DNA of 64,000 nt, from positions 1 through 64,000 of the forward strand of contig NZ_SWJG01000013.1 of the NCBI RefSeq assembly GCF_005870035.1. Direction: 5' to 3'. Below the pieces are notes generated by a model that was given only the letters and a program-made list of their open reading frames with translations, was not told where the DNA came from and did not search any database. The DNA comes from Spirosoma lacussanchae. Its GTDB lineage: Bacteria; Bacteroidota; Bacteroidia; Cytophagales; Spirosomataceae. Positions 781 through 9,781 of this stretch are shown one piece after another. The number at the start of each line of letters is the position of its first letter. Positions within the stretch are counted from its first letter, which is position 1. The translations under genes and the position numbers were made by a program.

Positions 781-2847
781 CTACGCTTTGCCGGGGATCG
801 GCGATCGGCTCTGCAATTGAGATACCCATTGGCAGAATAACTGCCACTTCACCATCGGCATGTCCCGGCTCGAGGGCATGTAGGTGGCCGACGACCAGTT
901 GGCGGGGTCCATTCGTTGCCAGATGAACGGCCACCCCTGGCTAAAATAGGCTTCTGTGAACGGAGTAATCAGTGACGCTTTGGGAAACACCAGATCGTAG
1001 GCCATCAGGAGTTCCTGATGCAGAAAATCGAACGGGATGGGTTGGGGATAGTCCGGATGGGTTGGGTCGAGGTAGGGGCCGTAGTCGGGCGCAGGCAGCA
1101 CTCGCAGGCTAACGAAGAAGCCCGTTTTGATCAGGTCGGTCAGGAGGTTGTCGGAAACCCTGGCTGTTGGTCCCGGATAAAATATATACATACTGTTAGC
1201 TGCCCGGTTGGTAGGGAAGCATAGCGGCTGTCCGTCGTAAAAATGGCTGGTTTCCAGAAACCGGTCAACAGTAGCCGACGAACCGGACTCCGTGATTGTC
1301 AGCGCCATGATGGTCATAGGAGTGGCTTCGGTCAGGGGCTTGCCTCGCCGGTAAACCCTGAGGTGACAGGGCTCCTGCCCGGGGCCATAGCTTCTGTATC
1401 CCTGGCTGGCATCCTGCCCCTGATCGATATACAGGCCCGACTCATCAGCAATAGCCATATAATCGCTTTCGAGTAAGTAGGTCGTGCGCTGGCTGGGATC
1501 GGCTGATCGACTACGAAGAGCCAGTAAGCCATTGTCAACGTCTGCTTCGGTCAGCGCCAGGGACTGGTCAATGGGTATGTCAAGAACCCCGCCCGTTTGC
1601 AGCAGATATTCCCGGCTCAGGTGACTGGCATCGACCTGGAAACTACCGAGGGTTACAGCTCCCTGGCCGGGTCGAATGAGGTCTAATGAAAGCACCCCCA
1701 ATGGATACGTTTCGTACCGGAGCGGCTGACTGCTGAGTTGGGTTTCGGGAATACTGCCCAGCAGGTCCAGGCGTGCCCTGCCCCTGGCATGATCGACCTG
1801 ACATACAACCGATGAAAGCGTTTTATCCGAAAAGTATGGTTTGTCGGGCAACAGTATCCGCCCCATCGTCATCGACTTCAGCTCGCCTTCGTACCAGGGC
1901 GTGAGGCTACCCGACACGGTAGCCGTGGCCGGATTGGCTTTTGTGCCCAGCGCTGAATAATCGGGGTGTTGATTTTCCTGAACCTCGAACAGATTATACC
2001 GAATCAGCACCCCAGCCAGTGGCTCCTGCCGGTGATTGAATTCCTGAAACAGACGCAAGAGTGGTGACGCCAGCCCACCGTCCAGTTCGTGTAGGGGCAG
2101 GGCCATAAAAAAAGTACCTGAACTGCTGAAGACCCCCGCTTGATTGACGATTCTATGCAGGTTTAAATGCCGAAGGGAGCCTTTGTAGGGTCTGCCCGAC
2201 AGCAACACCCTGTCTTTCTGGCGAACCCGAATCAGGTCACAGAACACCTGGCTGAACATGGCCAGACTGGGCAATACATCGATCATAACGGCTGTAGTCT
2301 GGCCGGCGTCGTTATCGAGGCTAACGACCGCATCCAGCAGCTGGGAGATGGCGGCCGGACAGTCGGCTAACTCGGTTGTGAATACCTGCTCATCGGCTGT
2401 TGCTACGCTGCTGACCCGTACATCCCGAAAGCCGAATTCCATGCCGCCGTAGTAATTCCAGCCAGCCGGTAAGTGGCCGGTGAGGGGTTTGCCCGTCCGT
2501 TTGATGGTAACCAGTTCGTATAACGCGTGGTAAGCGGTGTCGAGCGGGGAGCTGCCCAGGGGCGTTGTGGCCCAGTCGGTGAACGTCTGGCGGGTATTGA
2601 TCGGCTCGATGTCGATATACCGCTGATTGCCGTCTTCCTGAACTACCTGACCCGGTGGAACAGGCAAACCGCCCAGTTTGTGAAGCGCCAGCAGATCGGT
2701 AGACAGATAGACACGAGGGGGCAGAAACGCGCTGATCTGAATGGGGTCGTAGGTCACCAGCGGCAGCAGTATGTTATTGTTGGCCGTGCCGGGGTTAATG
2801 AAAGCCTGGCCCCGGAAGTTGACGCGCGGAAAATCAAACTGACTCAT
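781..2847 (-). CDS. VioB N-terminal-like protein lacking the ferritin-like domain
   Basis: This 688-residue protein has no signal peptide. Its start (FDFPRVNFRGQAFINPGTAN) and its end (WQRMDPANWSSATYMPSSRD preceded by a 'FLHQELLMAYDLVFP' segment) resemble, from memory, the start and the roughly 500-600 region of VioB, the imine-dimerising enzyme of violacein synthesis related to RebD/StaD. In VioB those parts are followed by a catalytic ferritin-like iminophenyl-pyruvate dimer synthase domain of several hundred residues. Here the protein stops shortly after the conserved 'YMPS' block, so that domain is absent. No tryptophan oxidase (VioA-like) gene is nearby. It faces away from the unknown gene starting at 2953 across about 105 bp. 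The homology is moderately secure; the biochemical role is unknown. Confidence 0.6.
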   Translation of the reverse strand: MSQFDFPRVNFRGQAFINPGTANNNILLPLVTYDPIQISAFLPPRVYLSTDLLALHKLGGLPVPPGQVVQEDGNQRYIDIEPINTRQTFTDWATTPLGSSPLDTAYHALYELVTIKRTGKPLTGHLPAGWNYYGGMEFGFRDVRVSSVATADEQVFTTELADCPAAISQLLDAVVSLDNDAGQTTAVMIDVLPSLAMFSQVFCDLIRVRQKDRVLLSGRPYKGSLRHLNLHRIVNQAGVFSSSGTFFMALPLHELDGGLASPLLRLFQEFNHRQEPLAGVLIRYNLFEVQENQHPDYSALGTKANPATATVSGSLTPWYEGELKSMTMGRILLPDKPYFSDKTLSSVVCQVDHARGRARLDLLGSIPETQLSSQPLRYETYPLGVLSLDLIRPGQGAVTLGSFQVDASHLSREYLLQTGGVLDIPIDQSLALTEADVDNGLLALRSRSADPSQRTTYLLESDYMAIADESGLYIDQGQDASQGYRSYGPGQEPCHLRVYRRGKPLTEATPMTIMALTITESGSSATVDRFLETSHFYDGQPLCFPTNRAANSMYIFYPGPTARVSDNLLTDLIKTGFFVSLRVLPAPDYGPYLDPTHPDYPQPIPFDFLHQELLMAYDLVFPKASLITPFTEAYFSQGWPFIWQRMDPANWSSATYMPSSRDMPMVKWQLFCQWVSQLQSRSPIPGKA

Positions 2848-2952
2848 ATCGACTCAAAAGAATACACGCATTACGGTTATATTTATCGGCTGCCACCACG
2901 GGCCTGCCAAAGCTTTACCGCGGCCGGCTTCCGGCCTCATCCACGACCTGCC

Positions 2953-4020
2953 ATGCAAGCAGACTTAGCCGACTACATCGACGTACTGACCCCCTGGCTC
3001 TCGACAGACCTGGTTTCGGACGCCTACCTGAGCCGCATCCGACAGATTGGCCGACGGCTACCGGCTTTATCGTTCGGTTGCTTCGAGTGCTGGCTCGGTC
3101 AGGATCAGATGCGGGTTGACCTAAACCTGGCCATTACGGGTAAGGTAAACGAGCACCTGGTGATTATAGACTGGCTGGCCGCAACTCCGGACGCCGATGA
3201 CGACGGGTATCAGTCTACTCTGGATAAGATACGATCTATTTGTGGTCTTTGGCGCGATAGTCAGTTTATTCTTCATCCGCATATTAAAGTACTCTGGCTG
3301 GTTTATGATATTACGGATCCGGTGTGCCGTGAGCCTGCGCCGTGGCTGTACATACATTTTAGGAGAAACCGCCTGAGCGACGATGTTCTTGTACGGCCCG
3401 AGCTGGTTCTTCAGACCGTTGCGCTCCTGAACGATCAGTACCCCCGGGAGCGGTTTCGTCCGTTTTTCGAGTCGATTGGGCCTGCTGTGCAGATCTGCTC
3501 CATCGGCGCACCAACCAGCCGGGATAAACAGGCGCTGCGGGTATATCTGATGATGCACTCCTTTTCGGACCTGCTCCAACTCCTCATCGACCATCATTGG
3601 CCCGGGAACGTGGCTGGGTTTAAGCAGGTGATGAGTCCGTACGCAGACCGTAGCGATTTTTTTGGCCTCTCCCTTGATATAACGCCCGAACTACAGCCCA
3701 GAATCGGTATTGAGTGCTGGTTTGCCGAAGATCGGGCGCAGGAGAAACTGGCTGACTTTACGCAGCAGCTGGTGGCTGACGATCTGTGCTCAACTCAGAA
3801 GCGGGATGCGCTGCTCAGCTGGAACGGCCAGTTCGACGTTCAGCTAAACCCGGGCCAGTGGTCGTGGCACGACCCGGCAACGGACATCCTGCTGCAGAAC
3901 CCGCAGCCAACCGCTGTCAGACGAATGGCGCAATACGTAAAGCTGACCTACCAACCCGGCAAACCCCTGCTGGCCAAAGGATACCTTTACTTCGATCGCT
4001 CGGCCAGACGGTCTGACTAG
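2953..4020 (+). CDS. Hypothetical protein, divergent partner of the VioB-like gene
   Basis: It encodes 355 residues starting MQADLADYIDVLTPWL. The open frame extends upstream to 2527, but that part lies antisense within the VioB-like gene and has no protein-like character, so ATG 2953 is chosen. There is no signal peptide or transmembrane segment. The protein is rich in tryptophan and aspartate, and its C-terminus carries a compact stretch, YVKLTYQPGKPLLAKGYLYF, that looks like a conserved core strand pair. I do not recognise a named family. The divergent arrangement over about 105 bp suggests shared control with the VioB-like gene. It converges on the sensor kinase gene, 15 bp away. Confidence 0.7.
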   Translation: MQADLADYIDVLTPWLSTDLVSDAYLSRIRQIGRRLPALSFGCFECWLGQDQMRVDLNLAITGKVNEHLVIIDWLAATPDADDDGYQSTLDKIRSICGLWRDSQFILHPHIKVLWLVYDITDPVCREPAPWLYIHFRRNRLSDDVLVRPELVLQTVALLNDQYPRERFRPFFESIGPAVQICSIGAPTSRDKQALRVYLMMHSFSDLLQLLIDHHWPGNVAGFKQVMSPYADRSDFFGLSLDITPELQPRIGIECWFAEDRAQEKLADFTQQLVADDLCSTQKRDALLSWNGQFDVQLNPGQWSWHDPATDILLQNPQPTAVRRMAQYVKLTYQPGKPLLAKGYLYFDRSARRSD

Positions 4021-4035
4021 CAGGGAGTTGGCCGG

Positions 4036-6141
4036 TCAGGCAGCGGGTGCGTAGGGCAGAATAATCGTAAACTCTGTATACAGGCCCTGTTCGGTTTGTA
4101 CGCGCAGTTCACCGGCATGGCCTTTGGTAATAATATCGTAAGCCAGATACAGCCCGAGTCCCGTTCCCTGTCCCGTTGGTTTGGTGGTAAAAAAGGGCTG
4201 GTATATCTTATTCAGAATATCAGCCGGAATGCCAATACCATTGTCTCTTATCTGAAGCGCCAGCCTGTTTTTTTCCAGAAACGTCCGGACCGAAAGCTGG
4301 GGTTGATACCCTGTTTGCGCTTGCCTGGCTTTCTCTTTTATGGCGTAAAAAGCATTGCCATAGATGTTCAGTAATACCTGGCCAATTTCCTGCGGGGCCA
4401 GTTCGGTAGGTTGTATGGTCGGGTCGAAATCTCTATAAAGTTCGGCGCTGAATAATACATCTTTGCTCCGAAGTCCCTGAAAAACAATCATTAAGTATTC
4501 TTCGGCGAGGTTGTTAAGATTGGTCATCCGCTTTTCGGCGGTTCCCATACGGCTGTGCTCCAGCATTCCTTTCACGATCGCATTGGCCCGGCCACCATGA
4601 GCCGTAATTCGTTTCATATTTTGTTTTAAATCCTCCAGAATAAAACTGGCTTCTGTCAGATCACCTTTGTTCAGTTCCTGCTGTATTTCTTCGACCAGTT
4701 CCGTATTAATTTCGGAGAAGTTATTGACGAAATTCAGGGGGTTCTGAATTTCATGCGCCACCCCGGCGGTCAGTTCGCCCAGCGATGCCATTTTTTCGCG
4801 CATAATGAGCTGATCCTGCGTAGAGCGCAGCTGGTTGAGTGATTGGTTTAGCTCCTGGGTTCTCTCCTCTACTTTTTGTTCCAGTTCCCGGTTCAGGGTT
4901 ATCTGAAGCTGTTGATTCTCTTCGAACTGGTGGATGATGCGGGCCTGTTTTTCTTCATTTTCGCGCCGGAGCACATTAATCATATTGGCCAGTGCAAAAG
5001 CCAGCATAATGACCTCCAGCGCCGAGCCGGTGGGTAAGGCGTACTTGAACGTAAAGTCATTTTTGGGCAGCACGCCCAGCAACATCAGAATGACGCACAG
5101 TATACCAGCGAACAAAAACGAGAAACCAATGGAGAAGAAAAGAGCCGACGGGTACCGGTCGCGAATACTACGTATACCCAGATAGATGATAAGCGGAAAC
5201 GAAGCCAGACCCAGTAGCTGGGTCATGGCAAACCCCAGCTCGAAGTAAATAAAGATCAGCAGACCCGAAAGAATATATAACCCGATCAAACCATTCAGAA
5301 TGTTATTCCAGAAAGGATACCGCTGCTTTACATTAAGAAAACTCTGGACAAACAAGACATAGACAATTGCCAATAGATTAGACGCTATCGATTCGAAATC
5401 TGAAAACCAGACCGGGAAATTGTCGCTGAATCCAAAAATAGAGATAAGATATCCTGAATTACCCGCTGTGAAAAAGAAAGCAAAAAATAACACTAATAAA
5501 TAGTACGCATAACTCTGTAAACGAGTCGAGATATAAATGAAGGCGTTGTAAATAAACATGACGATGAACACGCCGAGGAACATAAAAATGATTTGTCCTG
5601 AAAAAGCATTCGCTTCGTCAATTTTGGCGCGGGGCGCTGCGACAAAATTAAGGGTAACAGGTACTTTTTCTATATTGAATTTGGATATTAATCGGACAAT
5701 ACATTCCTGCGTCTCTCCAGCTTTGAGCGGTAATTTTATGTATACTTTATTAGCATGTGGGTAATCCCGTTTTTGGTACGGATATAAGTAGCCAGTCTCT
5801 TTACGCAGTAGCTTATTTTCTGATCCGTAAAAGAAGCTAACAAAAGACCAGTTTTCGAAATCAAATACCCATTCTTTATCAAACGCTGTATCATTTTTTA
5901 CTGAAAATTTTAGCCAATAAACCTGAATATTTTTATTCCATGGCGTATTATTTGCCGCTATGAACTCGCGCATAAACGTAGGGTTTACGACATCCGCAAT
6001 GGATAGCTTTCCAGTTGTATCTTTCAGGTAAGAGAAACCAGAGGAGATCGTGATTGGCTGATCCTGTTGTAATAGAATCGGTTGCGCCACCGAAGCTATT
6101 GAAAAAAACAAACAGTAATAGAATAAATAGAGGTATCTCAT
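4036..6141 (-). CDS. 7TM-DISM sensor histidine kinase
   Basis: It encodes 701 residues from ATG 6141, chosen because it begins a clean signal peptide (MRYLYLFYYCLFFSIASVAQ); the frame extends to 6294 without such a sequence. An extracellular beta-domain (about 25-180, DISMED2-like) is followed by about seven membrane helices (about 190-400), a coiled coil and a histidine kinase core. The phosphoacceptor is His463 in VAHEIQNPLNF. ATP-binding motifs follow: N box near NIYGNAFYAI, DNGIGIP, and GQGTGLGLYLAYDI. Such kinases sense extracellular small molecules and phosphorylate a response regulator. No regulator gene is adjacent, so the partner must lie elsewhere. The gene stands alone, converging with the 2953-4020 gene. 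Confidence 0.9.
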   Translation of the reverse strand: MRYLYLFYYCLFFSIASVAQPILLQQDQPITISSGFSYLKDTTGKLSIADVVNPTFMREFIAANNTPWNKNIQVYWLKFSVKNDTAFDKEWVFDFENWSFVSFFYGSENKLLRKETGYLYPYQKRDYPHANKVYIKLPLKAGETQECIVRLISKFNIEKVPVTLNFVAAPRAKIDEANAFSGQIIFMFLGVFIVMFIYNAFIYISTRLQSYAYYLLVLFFAFFFTAGNSGYLISIFGFSDNFPVWFSDFESIASNLLAIVYVLFVQSFLNVKQRYPFWNNILNGLIGLYILSGLLIFIYFELGFAMTQLLGLASFPLIIYLGIRSIRDRYPSALFFSIGFSFLFAGILCVILMLLGVLPKNDFTFKYALPTGSALEVIMLAFALANMINVLRRENEEKQARIIHQFEENQQLQITLNRELEQKVEERTQELNQSLNQLRSTQDQLIMREKMASLGELTAGVAHEIQNPLNFVNNFSEINTELVEEIQQELNKGDLTEASFILEDLKQNMKRITAHGGRANAIVKGMLEHSRMGTAEKRMTNLNNLAEEYLMIVFQGLRSKDVLFSAELYRDFDPTIQPTELAPQEIGQVLLNIYGNAFYAIKEKARQAQTGYQPQLSVRTFLEKNRLALQIRDNGIGIPADILNKIYQPFFTTKPTGQGTGLGLYLAYDIITKGHAGELRVQTEQGLYTEFTIILPYAPAA

Positions 6142-6744
6142 AGGGTTACGGTTTATACCGTCGGTTCGGCTTATCAGGATCAGTCTTTGGAAAATATCAG
6201 CATTCTTTCCTATTTTCTGAAGACCGCTATCCATCATTTTTTCGCTGTTACTGGCAACAGGGCGGTACGCACAGGGCTGGAGTAGCGAACACACGGTAGC
6301 GGTTACGGATAGGGTTACTGATAAAAGAGGGTTTGGGTGCTGGTTGAGGCAGGCAGGTTAATATCAGGAAAAGGCGTATTCAAAGCAATGTATACTGGCA
6401 AATAGTTGAAAGAAGCCATCGGTTAGGCCGGGTTAATATCGGTACTGGCTGCTTATTTCATCCGCTTACGAAACGAATGGGCAGCTTACTCAACCGCTCA
6501 CACAAATATTTCCTTTTTTCGGGCTGTTCTCTTTGATTTTACTACCGGCTTCTTACTTTTATACGCTTCATTTGTGGGATAATATACGACTCCTGACAGG
6601 TACTTGCCTGGGCCATGGCTACTAAAGTGTTTGAGCGAATTAGATTGACGGGTGATGCGAGCTAAATGCATACATCTGTATTTATTAAAAGCGATTAATT
6701 GTTTTTTATAATCAGTAGTTCACTAACCTAATTTGCCATAAACC
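6142..6744. other. 603-bp non-coding region upstream of the peptide gene
   Basis: No coding frame is convincing here. A promoter-like pair on the plus strand, TTG at 6533-6535 and TACTTTTA at 6554-6561 (18-bp spacer, one mismatch to TAnnTTTG), could drive the peptide gene with a leader of about 175 bases. The last 90 bases before the start at 6745 are strongly AT-rich. The region must also hold the sensor kinase promoter on the opposite strand, which I could not place. Confidence 0.35.
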
Positions 6745-7023
6745 ATGAAAGATTCTGAAACCCTGAAAGACGCCCTCACACGCACAGGCGATGCCAAGTA
6801 TGTTAAACATCTAACCCCCGATGCGCAGCAGCTGACCAAAGCCCAGCTTACCGATTTCATGAACAGCAAAACGGATCAGGACTTTAAACCGGAAACGATT
6901 AGTTCACTACGGAAATTTGCCAAGATGCGCATGAAGGACGGTAAAAGTATTTTTCCATACGAAAAGATGGAAAAACTGAAACATAACGAGTCCGACGACC
7001 ACATGGGCGGAGGCACCTGGTAA
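6745..7023 (+). CDS. Small peptide ending in GGGTW, candidate precursor peptide
   Basis: It encodes 92 residues starting MKDSETLKDALTRTG, charged and lysine-rich, with no signal peptide and no cysteine. The body looks helical; the tail changes character to ESDDHMGGGTW, a flexible acidic/glycine segment with a C-terminal tryptophan. It is followed immediately by a 14-bp perfect stem-loop (7027-7078) and then, 121 bp downstream, by a papain-like protease gene on the same strand. The layout of short charged peptide, partial terminator, cysteine protease and unknown gene is typical of precursor-peptide loci, and the GGG motif would suit proteolytic trimming. No family is recognised, and a role as a small regulator or immunity protein cannot be excluded. 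Confidence 0.7.
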   Translation: MKDSETLKDALTRTGDAKYVKHLTPDAQQLTKAQLTDFMNSKTDQDFKPETISSLRKFAKMRMKDGKSIFPYEKMEKLKHNESDDHMGGGTW

Positions 7024-7026
7024 GGC

Positions 7027-7078
7027 AAACGCGTATTCCCAGCTGATACCATAAGATGCAGACGGGGAATACGCGTTT
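7027..7078 (+). terminator. Intercistronic stem-loop / attenuator after the peptide gene
   Basis: AAACGCGTATTCCC (7027-7040) pairs perfectly with GGGAATACGCGTTT (7065-7078), a 14-bp stem with a 24-base loop, starting 4 bases after the peptide stop codon. The downstream side ends in only three Ts followed by ATTGAT, so it is a weak terminator or an mRNA-stabilising hairpin rather than a full stop. It would give excess peptide message over the downstream genes. Confidence 0.6.
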
Positions 7079-7144
7079 ATTGATCTACGGAGTTTAACTG
7101 CATAGCTGGCTAATTCTCTTTTATATCGTTAACTTATCTGTACC

Positions 7145-7741
7145 ATGCCCGGGAAAAAAGACAAAAAAGTGTCACTTAATTTTACCATGCAGCATCAGCT
7201 GGGACATGCTATGTGCTGGGCTGCTGTGGGTACAAGCTGTGCACTTTTTTACGATCCCGCCAGCAACTGGACCCAGTGCAAACTGGCCAGCCAGTCAATT
7301 GGGCCTGACACGGGCGATTGCTGCTCTAATCCCGAAAATTCTCCCTGCGATATAGTCTGGTATCTTCAGAATGATGAAAATATAGGGTCGTTCGTAACGG
7401 CCGGTATTGCGCGGGGCTATGAAAAAGGATTTATTCCTTATAAAAAACTTGTCGGCGAGCTGGATGCCGGCAGAATCATTGCGTTCCTGCTCCGAATGGA
7501 TATCGACGGGACGATCAATAACAGGAATGAATTTTCTCATTTTGTAGCCATCGCGGGCTATGAGTGGACCGATACGGAAGAAAACGTAATTATATATGAC
7601 TCTTTTTTCGGCAAATCAGAAATGTCTTACAAAGAGTTTGTGACTAATTATAAATGCCATGGCGGCACGGTGCTGGGCCACGCCGTTAAAGATAGTCTGG
7701 TAGAATATACGTTTTTTTCGACGCCAACATCAACGCCTTAA
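7145..7741 (+). CDS. Papain-like cysteine protease (C70/AvrRpt2-like)
   Basis: It encodes 198 residues with no signal peptide (start MPGKKDKK), so it is probably cytosolic. The nucleophile is Cys24 in HAMCWAA, with Gln16 or Gln18 supplying the oxyanion hole. His132 (EFSHFVAI) and Asp152 (IIYDSFFG) complete a papain-type triad. The block FYDPASNWTQCKLASQ followed by GDCC is typical of the AvrRpt2-type papain-like family (Pfam PF12385, peptidase family C70 or near it). Several further cysteines (45, 59, 60, 68) could form a structural cluster. It lies between the GGGTW peptide and the 194-aa gene, 3 bp from the latter, implying one transcript. The peptide is an obvious substrate candidate, but this is inference. 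Confidence 0.8.
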   Translation: MPGKKDKKVSLNFTMQHQLGHAMCWAAVGTSCALFYDPASNWTQCKLASQSIGPDTGDCCSNPENSPCDIVWYLQNDENIGSFVTAGIARGYEKGFIPYKKLVGELDAGRIIAFLLRMDIDGTINNRNEFSHFVAIAGYEWTDTEENVIIYDSFFGKSEMSYKEFVTNYKCHGGTVLGHAVKDSLVEYTFFSTPTSTP

Positions 7742-7744
7742 GCC

Positions 7745-8329
7745 ATGCCGATCCGACAGATACTCGCCCCCGAAAAATCAGTTGTCAAGTATACGGGCTG
7801 GCTCACCCAGCGAAAGCCGAAGTCGTTGCAGCTCAAAAAAACCTTTACCTACGAGAAGGCTTTGCCGCATAAAGTATACCACGCGCAGTTGAGTGATATT
7901 CTTTCCGAGGTTGGGTTTAGCCAGGCGGATGTTGTTTCATGGCGACACCTGCATACGGATCAGCATGGCACCGTGGCTGTAGAGACCAGAGTTGGCAAAA
8001 GGGGCCAATACCAGGTTCACGAGGTCCATTCCGGCCATATGGTCGATGCGTTGAAGGAGCTGTACCCGGCTCTGAAAAAGAAGAAAGAAATCCGGACCGG
8101 CGATTATGAGTACTCGTTCCTGCGACTCTTCTCGCTCAAGATTTGTGCCGTCTGGTTGCGGGCCGACAGTCGCGAAGCTGATTACTTTATGCCGTTGCCT
8201 CCGTGTTTTTACGGCTTAGAACGCGATAAGCTGTATACCTGCGCCGAGTTTACCGACATTGTCCGGAAAGCTATCCAAACGCTCCAGGCTAAAACCGATA
8301 CGTACGGCCATCCGATGCAGGGGGGCTGA
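7745..8329 (+). CDS. Hypothetical protein, co-transcribed with the cysteine protease
   Basis: It encodes 194 residues starting MPIRQILAPEKSVVKYTG, basic and soluble, without signal peptide or membrane segment. It starts 3 bp after the protease stop codon, so the two are almost certainly translated from one message. I recognise no domain. Visible features are a central SWRHLHTDQHG segment with clustered histidines and a C-terminal FMPLPPCFYGLERDKLYTC segment with two cysteines. It may be a regulator, scaffold or inhibitor of the protease. It converges on the HTTM gene with only 4 bp between stop codons. Confidence 0.7.
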   Translation: MPIRQILAPEKSVVKYTGWLTQRKPKSLQLKKTFTYEKALPHKVYHAQLSDILSEVGFSQADVVSWRHLHTDQHGTVAVETRVGKRGQYQVHEVHSGHMVDALKELYPALKKKKEIRTGDYEYSFLRLFSLKICAVWLRADSREADYFMPLPPCFYGLERDKLYTCAEFTDIVRKAIQTLQAKTDTYGHPMQGG

Positions 8330-8333
8330 TCAG

Positions 8334-9242
8334 CTACGCCAGCCATCGCTGAATCTGGCCGAATAAATAGCCGTACTCGTGCGGGCTCACAAAGGCCCCC
8401 AGGCCCGCAATCATGGCCATCTGAAAAAAACCGATGCGCAGGAAAACCCATAGCCCCAGGTGAAACAGGACGCCCAGCGCCACTACCGCCAGCCGACACT
8501 CATCGATCCAGATCAGGGTGAAAAGAGCGGTTTCGATGACGAGCGTGCCGTAGGTGGTTGTTTTATAAAACCAGGACCGGTCCAGGACCGGCGGAATAAC
8601 GAATCGATTCCAGATTCTGACGCGTAAGACCAGCTGGGTAGCGGTCCCGTTGAGCCAGCTGCTACCCTGTAGTTTGAAAAAGACGTTTTTTAGATAGATG
8701 TTCGCCATAAAAAGCTGAATCATCAGCAGGGGCCAGGCTGGGGCTTTGGCTTCGGGCTGGAGCAGGTTCGGATAATCCATTACCGAGAGCTGAGTCTGGG
8801 TCGGTGCAAAGACCAGAAACAGGCAGAAAAAGCGGTACAGCGCATCGCCCGAGCTGAGCACGTACATGTTTCGGTTGTGGATAGAAACGAGCGTTATAAA
8901 ACAAATCAGCGCGGCCAGCTGAGGCTGGATACCGACGGTCAGGCAAAACCCGGCTATGGTCTGAACTCCCAGCAAAACCTCTACCGACCGGGTGCTGGGC
9001 GGCATGTAGTTGAGGAGCGAAAAACGGGCCGGCTGCTGAAGGGTAATGTACTCATCGTAGCCAAACCAGCCGTCGGGACTTAACAGGAGTTTGTAGACGC
9101 TGAGCCAGTTCCGGGTTTCGGTAAGCACCAGCATACCCGTCAGCGCCCTGAATACGCAGAGCGTCAGGCTAGACTGCTCGCTGAACAGCAACTGGTTCCA
9201 GCCTCCGGCCAGCTCGCCAAAAGTGATGAAGAGGAGTGTCAT
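8334..9242 (-). CDS. HTTM-domain membrane protein (vitamin K carboxylase-like fold)
   Basis: It encodes 302 residues with about six to eight hydrophobic segments. The sequence pattern RALTGMLVLTETRNW, WFGYDEY near the first extracellular loop, LIQLFMANIYLKNVFFKLQG and the FHLGLWVFLRIGFFQMAMI helix fit the HTTM family (horizontally transferred transmembrane, related to vitamin K-dependent gamma-carboxylase, PF05090). Bacterial members are mostly uncharacterised; the soluble carboxylase lobe is absent at this length. Its start overlaps the end of the upstream 180-aa gene by 4 bp, so the two are translationally coupled. Role unknown; it may belong to the same accessory island as the peptide/protease genes, which it faces tail to tail. 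Confidence 0.75.
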   Translation of the reverse strand: MTLLFITFGELAGGWNQLLFSEQSSLTLCVFRALTGMLVLTETRNWLSVYKLLLSPDGWFGYDEYITLQQPARFSLLNYMPPSTRSVEVLLGVQTIAGFCLTVGIQPQLAALICFITLVSIHNRNMYVLSSGDALYRFFCLFLVFAPTQTQLSVMDYPNLLQPEAKAPAWPLLMIQLFMANIYLKNVFFKLQGSSWLNGTATQLVLRVRIWNRFVIPPVLDRSWFYKTTTYGTLVIETALFTLIWIDECRLAVVALGVLFHLGLWVFLRIGFFQMAMIAGLGAFVSPHEYGYLFGQIQRWLA

Positions 9243-9781
9243 ACGGCCGGCGTGCGATGCTGTTCGATTACGTCGTGCGTATAAACCACCTGACTCATCC
9301 AGGGAACCAGCTGAAACGTGCCGTTGACCGGGGGCTCATAGTACTGGAGTATGTGTATGCGAATAGGTGGATTGGCGGCATCCTGCTGCGGTCGGTACTG
9401 GCGAAGAACGTACCGGCAAATGGCCTCTTTGGGAATAGGGTCTTTCTGCGACAGCAACTGATTATGCATCTTGATGAACCGGAAATGGTCCGTCAGTTGA
9501 TAGTCGTCCTGGAGGGTGTAGGGGGCGAGTTTCCAGGCCACAACGGTACCGTTGGCCAGTTCGATCTCGAACCCGATCAGGAAGTTTTTGGAGATGGGGC
9601 GGGGCGCAAACAAGGACCAGTAATTGTCGAGCCCGGCCCAGCAGATATACCGGCCCAGCTTTGTGTGTAGCAGATCCCGAAAGAAATACCCTTCCGGCAA
9701 ACACCAGAAGAGCAGAAACAGACTCATCAGGATAACGAACAGGCTCGCCAGCGTTTGCTGAGCCAGTACAAACCATTCCAC
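9239..9781 (-). CDS. Membrane-anchored partner of the HTTM protein
   Basis: It encodes 180 residues with one strong N-terminal membrane helix (about 5-28, LAQQTLASLFVILMSLFLLF) and then a soluble beta-rich domain. The motif GLDNYWSLFAPRPISKNF (about 49-66) is typical of small proteins found beside or fused to HTTM proteins, where 'W-x-M/L-F-A-P' follows the anchor. It probably forms a complex with the HTTM protein, since the genes overlap by 4 bp (9239-9242). No enzymatic motif is visible. The gene is the first of this two-gene unit; an upstream promoter in 9782-9868 was not identified. Confidence 0.7.
   Translation of the reverse strand: MEWFVLAQQTLASLFVILMSLFLLFWCLPEGYFFRDLLHTKLGRYICWAGLDNYWSLFAPRPISKNFLIGFEIELANGTVVAWKLAPYTLQDDYQLTDHFRFIKMHNQLLSQKDPIPKEAICRYVLRQYRPQQDAANPPIRIHILQYYEPPVNGTFQLVPWMSQVVYTHDVIEQHRTPAV

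What the first reader, a model, noticed from the sequence alone, without database searches (positions are those of the whole stretch)
6745..8329. Candidate peptide-processing locus: GGGTW peptide, cysteine protease, unknown partner
A 92-residue charged peptide with a distinct acidic/glycine tail ending GGGTW is followed on the same strand by a complete papain-like protease (Cys24, His132, Asp152) and, 3 bp later, an unrecognised 194-residue protein. None carries a signal peptide. The order and spacing resemble loci where a protease trims a short precursor or conjugation protein, but no known class was recognised. The function is inference; the catalytic residues are read directly.
Basis: partly seen in the sequence, partly recalled or inferred. 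Interest (0 to 1): 0.7.

Follow-up and report, generated by a model that had tools for sequence, protein, structure and literature searches.

The report
Tryptophan-tailed peptide-processing gene cassette
A Spirosoma bacterium carries a set of eight genes that looks built to make, trim and perhaps sense a tiny tryptophan-based molecule cut from the end of a small protein; if confirmed, it would be a new branch of peptide-derived bacterial chemistry.

Summary
The three genes are real and correctly read. They are the middle of an eight-gene accessory cassette (window 781-9781), present in all 6 Spirosomaceae genomes with the peptide. In the genus, peptide, partner, X359 and VioB-like genes hit the same 3 of 36 genomes. 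The peptide's tail GGTW is invariant (6 of 6). The protease is a C39/C70-like papain-fold enzyme; its partner lies directly downstream in 13 of 14 loci seen and is fused to it in the other. Nine of 14 partners end in Gly-Gly, like the peptide just before its final Thr-Trp. Other cassette genes: a VioB-like protein (VioB couples tryptophan-derived imines), a family otherwise seen mostly in RiPP clusters, a 7TM sensor kinase, an SdpB-like membrane protein. Best reading: a RiPP-type cluster in which the protease frees a C-terminal Thr-Trp core after GG and the partner restrains the protease. A distant cluster has a probable homologue that keeps the terminal Trp but lacks both GG and this protease: the Trp, not the glycine run, is the constant part. 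Cleavage, modification, product and signalling are inferred.

The parts
781..2847 (-). Y688: VioB-like protein, 688 aa (best stretch matches positions 238-585 of the 1003-position VioB model)
   Evidence: TIGR04492 E=2.6e-14, 52 bits, cut-off 1250; in 3 of 36 genus genomes, the same three as the peptide
2953..4020 (+). X359: uncharacterised protein whose distant homologues lie mostly in RiPP clusters
   Evidence: 3 of 99 relatives; plasmid homologues at 23-29% identity in RiPP contexts; start chosen by homology
4036..6294 (-). 7TMR-DISM sensor histidine kinase, divergent from the peptide gene (start uncertain)
   Evidence: PF07695 E=1.9e-33, PF07696, HATPase_c; in all 6 cassettes; a version with a cyclase output beside the peptide homologue in G161
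6745..7023 (+). Precursor-like peptide, 92 aa, tail DDHMGGGTW
7027..7078 (+). Hairpin (14-bp perfect stem, 24-nt loop) between peptide and protease genes
   Evidence: hairpin in 6 of 6 homologous intergenic stretches
7145..7741 (+). Papain-fold cysteine protease, C39/C70-like
   Evidence: PF13529 E=0.021, below cut-off; 5 of 6 relatives scanned pass the PF12385 cut-off and the sixth passes PF13529; catalytic residues invariant
7745..8329 (+). Protease partner, C-terminal MQGG; proposed cognate inhibitor/control subunit
   Evidence: directly 3' of the protease in 13 of 14 loci, fused in 1; tails
8334..9242 (-). HTTM-domain membrane protein, distantly SdpB-like
   Evidence: PF05090 E=3.5e-14; TIGR04033 30.7 bits, cut-off 178.4; in 3 of 60 relatives, the same three genomes
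9239..9781 (-). 180-aa protein with one likely N-terminal membrane helix (by eye), beside the HTTM gene
   Evidence: no family hit; in all 6 cassettes

Best explanation
The trio is the precursor-and-processing arm of an eight-gene RiPP-type cassette. The 92-residue peptide is a precursor with a leader of about 90 residues and a minimal C-terminal core, Thr-Trp (at least the Trp). Cassette enzymes (X359 and/or the VioB-like Y688) modify the Trp while it is on the leader. The papain-fold protease then cuts after Gly-Gly (G90|T91) and frees the core. The partner is the protease's cognate control subunit, probably an inhibitor whose C-terminal [L/M]xGG tail sits in the active site like the leader product. 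The HTTM and 180-aa membrane proteins help mature or export the product, and the divergent 7TM sensor kinase responds to it. Shown here: gene content, co-occurrence, conserved tails, conserved catalytic residues, homology of X359 to proteins of RiPP clusters and of Y688 to VioB. Inferred: cleavage site, modification, inhibitor role, export and sensing.
For: All eight genes in 6 of 6 peptide genomes, with differing outer neighbours. Same 3 genus genomes for peptide, partner, X359 and Y688; HTTM in the same 3 of 60 relatives. GGTW invariant in 6 of 6 at down to 52% identity. Hairpin between peptide and enzyme genes in 6 of 6. X359 homologues in clusters with NHLP leaders, PoyD-type epimerase, LanM, a TfuA-like protein or Nif11 precursors (three Bacteroidota clusters read by eye). 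VioB homology of Y688; VioB dimerises a tryptophan-derived imine (PMC10076799, passages). Weak best PDB matches of the protease profile include double-glycine C39 domains, E 0.045-1.5; AvrRpt2 (C70) cuts [LVI]PxFGxW (PMC6386880 and PMC8150971, passages), with Gly and Trp spaced as in G-T-W. Partner tails GG in 9 of 14; among 263 ORFs of 120+ aa, 8 of the 9 ending in GG are partners. Precedents: PalX, an NHLP precursor with a conserved C-terminal Trp (PMC10853753, passages); mycofactocin, a C-terminal Val-Tyr core released by a peptidase (PMC7491314, passages); an inhibitor gene 5 bp after a papain-like protease gene in Bacteroides (PMC3462683, passages).
Against: No known RiPP-modifying enzyme was recognised in the cassette; X359 and Y688 are uncharacterised, and Y688 is far below the VioB cut-off. 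The peptide homologue in G161 has no GG and no C70 protease nearby, and its homology is not beyond doubt: 21.2 bits (E 4.6e-5), while set-aside chance hits in the same call reach 18.3 bits, and BLASTP finds nothing. The GGTW peptide is seen in one protease clade only. Eight protease-partner loci have no peptide, so the protease family did not arise for it. Exact C-terminal GG is absent in 5 of 14 partners (one has GG+KRK, one GA, three neither). No NHLP/Nif11 hit for the leader. The window's own hairpin is only modestly better than shuffles. The protease profile's best, though weak, PDB matches are CdiA toxin domains. Structure models were too poor to use.
Confidence: 0.5

Rival explanations
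1. The protease-partner pair is an effector/toxin with its immunity protein, captured by the cassette as cargo; the peptide is not its substrate.
For: The pair occurs alone on plasmids and in other genomes, with the protease fused to beta-propeller lectin, NHL/LamG-type domains or a C-terminal extension, once near a polymorphic-toxin gene; the best, weak PDB matches are CdiA toxin domains, E 0.012 and 0.016.
Against: In the cassette clade the protease is bare, has no delivery domain, and always comes with the peptide (6 of 6); the peptide tail resembles the motifs cut by related families.
Confidence: 0.17
2. The GGTW tail is not cut but docks in the protease, replacing a hairpin (GxGxWT) that this clade's proteases have lost, so the peptide is an activator or inhibitor in trans.
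For: GxGxW[TS] hairpin in 8 of 8 proteases without the peptide and 0 of 6 with it.
Against: All 6 form one clade, so this counts once; the G161 peptide keeps the Trp with no such protease found nearby.
Confidence: 0.1
3. The partner, not the peptide, is the substrate or a ubiquitin-like protein: its [L/M]xGG end (LQGG-KRK in one) is exposed by the protease and then conjugated.
For: GG tails; LQGGKRK in the Persicitalea MAG looks like an untrimmed precursor.
Against: No E1/E2-like gene recognised in the cassette; 9 of 14 partners already end at GG and 3 of 14 have no GG; a natural protease-partner fusion ends in GA.
Confidence: 0.06
4. The cassette is above all a signalling system (ComQXPA-like): a modified Trp peptide is the pheromone and the 7TM kinase its receptor; the protease merely trims it. 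This is compatible with the best explanation rather than exclusive.
For: The sensor gene is divergent from the peptide gene in all 6 cassettes and, with a cyclase output, in G161.
Against: No response regulator recognised in the cassette; X359 has no detectable similarity to ComQ or other prenyltransferases in the libraries used.
Confidence: 0.3

Closest known systems
AvrRpt2 / Peptidase C70 and C39-type double-glycine peptidases
   Same: Papain-type Gln/Cys/His/Asp residues, small single domain; Gly-directed cutting would fit the peptide tail
   Different: The window protein itself gives no PF12385 hit; no type III context seen; conserved partner gene; AvrRpt2 needs a host cyclophilin (PMC11475232, passages)
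Mycofactocin (MftA with Val-Tyr core, MftE peptidase)
   Same: Minimal aromatic C-terminal core on a leader, released by a peptidase (PMC7491314, passages)
   Different: No mycofactocin maturase recognised among the cassette genes; core Thr-Trp; leader about 90 residues
PalX/PalQ RiPP (C-terminal Trp prenylation)
   Same: Long leader, conserved C-terminal Trp (PMC10853753, passages)
   Different: Leader is not NHLP by profile; no isoprenoid-synthase-like gene recognised in the cassette
VioB/RebD tryptophan-imine dimer synthases
   Same: Y688 is homologous to part of the VioB model
   Different: 52 bits against a cut-off of 1250; shorter (688 against 1003 positions); no tryptophan oxidase recognised in the cassette
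Staphopain-staphostatin and Bacteroides C10-Bti pairs
   Same: Papain-like protease gene followed at once by a small partner gene; 3 bp here, 5 bp for btpA-btiA (PMC3462683, passages)
   Different: Partner is 179-201 aa (275 in Persicitalea) rather than 116-138; no sequence match in the PDB; no signal peptide evident on the protease
SdpABC antimicrobial peptide system
   Same: HTTM protein distantly like SdpB plus a small membrane-anchored companion
   Different: Below the SdpB cut-off; no SdpA or SdpC hit for the 180-aa protein or the peptide; peptide has no evident signal sequence

Membership tests
Peptidase C70 (AvrRpt2) | Passes Pfam PF12385 gathering score (19 bits) | tested here: not met
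   Window protease: no PF12385 hit at E<=5. Of 6 relatives scanned, 5 pass (Persicitalea 20.7, Nocardia 37.2, Rhizobium 21.6, Azospirillum 24.6, Burkholderia 27.0) and cassette member L015 does not (14.1) but passes C39_2 (28.4, cut-off 24); the longer Persicitalea ORF scores 18.4
Peptidase C70 (AvrRpt2) | Cys-His-Asp triad with upstream Gln | tested here: met
   Q18, C24, H132, D152 invariant
Peptidase C70 (AvrRpt2) | Cuts at [LVI]PxFGxW | not testable with these tools
   Tail has G-x-W but not the PxF part; cutting not assayed
RiPP biosynthetic cluster | Gene-encoded precursor with conserved core | tested here: met
   GGTW invariant in 6 of 6; terminal Trp in 7 of 7 with G161
RiPP biosynthetic cluster | Recognised modifying enzyme in the cluster | tested here: inconclusive
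   X359 homologues lie in RiPP clusters but X359 has no assigned activity
RiPP biosynthetic cluster | Modified, leader-free product | not testable with these tools
   needs mass spectrometry
NHLP/Nif11 precursor | Matches TIGR03793 or TIGR03798 | tested here: not met
   No such hit for the peptide at E<=5
ComQXPA-type quorum sensing | Isoprenoid-synthase-like ComQ | tested here: not met
   No such hit for X359 in Pfam, NCBIfam or PDB sequences
ComQXPA-type quorum sensing | Receptor histidine kinase beside the pheromone gene | tested here: met
   7TMR-DISM kinase divergent from the peptide in 6 of 6; ligand unknown
Staphostatin-like inhibitor | Gene directly next to a papain-like protease | tested here: met
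   13 of 14 directly downstream, 1 fused
Staphostatin-like inhibitor | Sequence or fold similarity to staphostatins | tested here: not met
   No PDB sequence match; model too poor for a fold test
VioB | TIGR04492 equivalog cut-off 1250 bits | tested here: not met
   52 bits; partial homology only
SdpB | TIGR04033 cut-off 178.4 bits | tested here: not met
   30.7 bits

The most novel reading that the evidence does not exclude
A new RiPP class: a VioB-like protein and X359 act on the tryptophan at the very end of a 92-residue carrier protein, a GG-cutting papain-fold protease restrained by a GG-tailed partner then releases a Thr-Trp-derived small molecule, and a 7TM kinase (or, in a distant lineage, a 7TM cyclase) encoded beside the peptide senses it: a tryptophan-derived bacterial signal made on a protein scaffold.
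Probability: 0.25. Interest if true: 0.85.

Novelty: new variant of a known kind. Interest (0 to 1): 0.62.

Why it matters
It would add a minimal-core RiPP in Bacteroidota, suggest VioB-type indole chemistry on a peptide-bound tryptophan, give C70/C39-like proteases a native bacterial substrate, and explain the unnamed partner that follows them. The core claim is directly testable with two or three purified proteins and one deletion mutant.

Tried and rejected
Pfam, NCBIfam, PHROGs and PADLOC scans of the trio gave nothing above a cut-off or of note. Weak peptide hits in G064 and in G540, G571 and G579 were set aside as chance: 19.5-21.2 bits, inside open frames of 245-397 residues; one was read (L019). 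AlphaFold models from 3-row alignments had mean pLDDT 51.5 (partner) and 36.1 (protease), and the partner's Foldseek search gave no match at E<=0.001, so no fold claim is made. My own idea that X359 is a peptide prenyltransferase, from recalled motifs, found no support in family or PDB sequence searches and is dropped. Viral contigs and phage records (with the Nocardia partner, with the window protease) gave no relatives. One scan of genome contigs with a 4-row partner alignment gave only S. sordidisoli and the Persicitalea MAG. A search for Y688 in 198 genomes of the order of G161 found only G161. A partner search with alignment A4 in 395 genomes of the phylum found only G000 and G284. Literature: no such cassette in the listings (open-access library, few query terms); this is weak evidence of novelty.

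The ubiquitin-like reading of the GG tails was considered and kept only as a minor rival.
Full report
WHAT IS THERE. The three open frames are exactly as reported: a 92-residue peptide (6745-7023) ending DDHMGGGTW, a 198-residue protease (7145-7741) and a 194-residue protein (7745-8329), with 3 bp between the last two. The genome is of the genus Spirosoma: its relative G009, placed in the same genus, matches S. sordidisoli TY50, with 93-96% protein identity over the trio. The protease residues Cys24, His132 and Asp152, and Gln18, are invariant in 8 aligned sequences and at the matching columns in 12.

THE PEPTIDE IS A CONSERVED GENE. A profile matched 9 of 222 genomes of the family; 3 of them (G540, G571, G579) had only weak hits inside long ORFs and were set aside, as was G064 in the 99-genome search, leaving 6 of 222. 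Identity to the window copy is 52-96% and the tail GGTW is invariant in 6 of 6; before it the pattern is D-D-x-M-x-G-G in all six.

THE UNIT IS EIGHT GENES. In all six genomes the same order is found: Y688, X359, 7TMR-DISM histidine kinase, peptide, protease, partner, HTTM protein, 180-aa protein. In L007, L027, L024 and L025 the Y688 gene runs off the stretch fetched; it is complete in the window, L026, L067 (G009) and L068 (G014). Four of these genes were searched separately through the genus (36 genomes held) and hit exactly the same three genomes (G000, G009, G014): peptide and X359 within 99 relatives, partner within the same 99 (with G047 outside the genus as well), Y688 within the 36; the HTTM gene did so among 60 relatives. 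The kinase, the protease and the 180-aa protein were not searched through the genus. The downstream neighbours differ between window/G009, G014 and the G284/G628/G631 group, so the block behaves as an accessory unit.

THE PROTEASE AND ITS PARTNER. The window protease scores below cut-off against C39_2. Of 6 relatives scanned, 5 pass the C70 (AvrRpt2) cut-off and the sixth, from a cassette, passes C39_2. The partner belongs to the protease rather than to the peptide: the pair also occurs without the peptide in 8 loci, namely a Persicitalea MAG (L008), G645 (L060), G550 (L061, and L062 where the two are one protein of 388 residues), and plasmids of Nocardia, Rhizobium, Azospirillum and Burkholderia. 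Absence of the peptide there rests on the family-wide search for G047, G550 and G645 and on a profile search of all ORFs of 40 or more residues in the loci held; the chromosomes of the plasmid hosts were not searched. In the family the partner profile matched 9 of 222 genomes: the 6 with the peptide plus G047, G550 and G645. The partner gene is directly downstream in 13 of 14 loci and fused in one. In several loci the protease carries extra domains: beta-propeller lectin (Nocardia, NF052348 E=2.6e-85), NHL and LamG-type (Persicitalea), a C-terminal extension (Rhizobium). How common the pair is outside Bacteroidota is unknown.

THE GG TAILS. Nine of 14 partners end in GG; one has GG followed by KRK, one ends in GA, and three (Rhizobium, Azospirillum, Burkholderia) have neither. 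In a background of 263 non-overlapping ORFs of 120 or more residues from the window and 21 of the fetched loci, 9 end in GG and 8 of these are partners; the ninth is the X359 protein of G014. Related loci count several times in these numbers. The partner ends DDDLKGG and DDDLMGG resemble the peptide's DDxMxGG just before TW. I read the partner tail as a product mimic lying in the same active-site cleft. This fits a known habit of papain-like bacterial proteases: staphopains and Bacteroides C10 proteases are encoded next to small inhibitors, one of them 5 bp downstream (PMC3462683, passages). It is a likeness of logic only; no PDB sequence match was found for the partner.

WHY GG|TW. Two hints point to a cut between Gly90 and Thr91. 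After CdiA toxin domains (E 0.012, 0.016), the next solved matches of the protease profile are double-glycine peptidases of bacteriocin exporters (E 0.045-1.5), all weak. AvrRpt2 cuts [LVI]PxFGxW (PMC6386880; PMC8150971; passages; the exact bond is recalled), which puts Gly and Trp two apart as in G-T-W. Neither is a test of cutting.

WHY A RiPP-TYPE CLUSTER. X359 has no family hit of note, but homologues at 23-29% identity on plasmids lie in RiPP clusters: with an NHLP leader and a PoyD-type epimerase in Nostoc; an NHLP leader, a TfuA-like protein (below its cut-off) and LanM in Azospirillum B510; LanM and Nif11 precursors in Pseudanabaena; a RiPP rSAM methyltransferase and a Nif11 precursor in Acaryochloris. 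In the phylum sample X359 occurs in 8 of 395 genomes. Of the six not already known I fetched five (G342 not): G404, G466 and G310 show GG-type leader peptides and, in the last two, exporter genes (by eye), G161 is described below, and G128 was unclear. Y688 is homologous to part of VioB, which couples two tryptophan-derived imines (PMC10076799, passages). A hairpin lies between peptide and protease genes in 6 of 6 cassettes, with differing sequences (z -2.1 in the window to -7.2; 147 of 171 nt folded for L027), as expected if the precursor is needed in excess; that use is inference. Precedents for a small aromatic C-terminal core are mycofactocin's Val-Tyr (PMC7491314, passages) and PalX's C-terminal Trp (PMC10853753, passages).

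THE DISTANT CLUSTER. G161 (L055) has two X359 copies, a Y688 homologue (31% identity), a 7TMR-DISM sensor with a cyclase in place of the kinase and, in the same divergent position, an 84-residue peptide ending EEVNPNW. It matches the six-peptide profile at 21.2 bits, E=4.6e-5 among 3078 ORFs, the best after the cassette peptides; the set-aside chance hits reach 18.3 bits, and BLASTP finds nothing, so the homology leans on position as well. No C70 protease, partner or HTTM gene was found in the 18-kb stretch; a serine protease with a pro-kumamolisin domain is nearby. So the terminal Trp is the constant (7 of 7) and GG goes with the C70 protease. This is one case, and the serine protease could be a chance neighbour. 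It counts against GG as an essential part and for the Trp as the core.

A PATTERN AGAINST SIMPLE CUTTING. Proteases without the peptide have a GxGxW[TS] hairpin near their C-terminus (8 of 8); those with it do not (0 of 6). The tail could therefore be a docking strand. The six proteases form a single clade, so this is one event.

CONFIDENCE. Cassette and homologies: shown. Peptide as a precursor with a Trp core: about 0.6. Protease cuts GG|TW: about 0.5. Partner as inhibitor/control subunit: about 0.55. Trp modified by X359 or Y688: about 0.35. Product sensed by the kinase: about 0.3.

Noticed in passing
L019 5-1842 (similar ORFs in L020-L023): A 241-residue sigma-factor-like ORF followed by a 363-residue TnpB/Cas12f-like ORF in L019 (by eye); such ORFs turned up as chance hits to the peptide profile and resemble sigma-linked Cas12f-type systems (recalled).
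   Followed up: no
L062 5766-6932: Natural single-protein fusion of the C70-like protease and its partner (388 aa, ends MMGA).
   Followed up: partly
L008 331-3297 and L006 4320-5858: The protease domain fused behind NHL/LamG-type domains (989 aa) and behind a beta-propeller lectin (513 aa), without an evident signal peptide.
   Followed up: partly
L060 and L061, around the pair: The protease-partner pairs of G645 and G550 share similar flanking genes by eye (about 136-155, 415-430 and 457-463 aa), suggesting a second conserved gene set around the pair.
   Followed up: no
L036 5989-7779: X359-like domain fused to a 2OG-Fe(II) oxygenase domain in a Pseudanabaena RiPP cluster, a hint to X359's role.
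   Followed up: partly
L065 7836-10947: Azospirillum B510 has a VioB-like protein and a separate ferritin-like protein side by side, as if VioB were split in two.
   Followed up: no
L013 1840-6384: Rhizobium pRlvC: an AAA ATPase and a protein with a weak HNH match lie upstream of the protease-partner pair, near DNA-repair genes.
   Followed up: no
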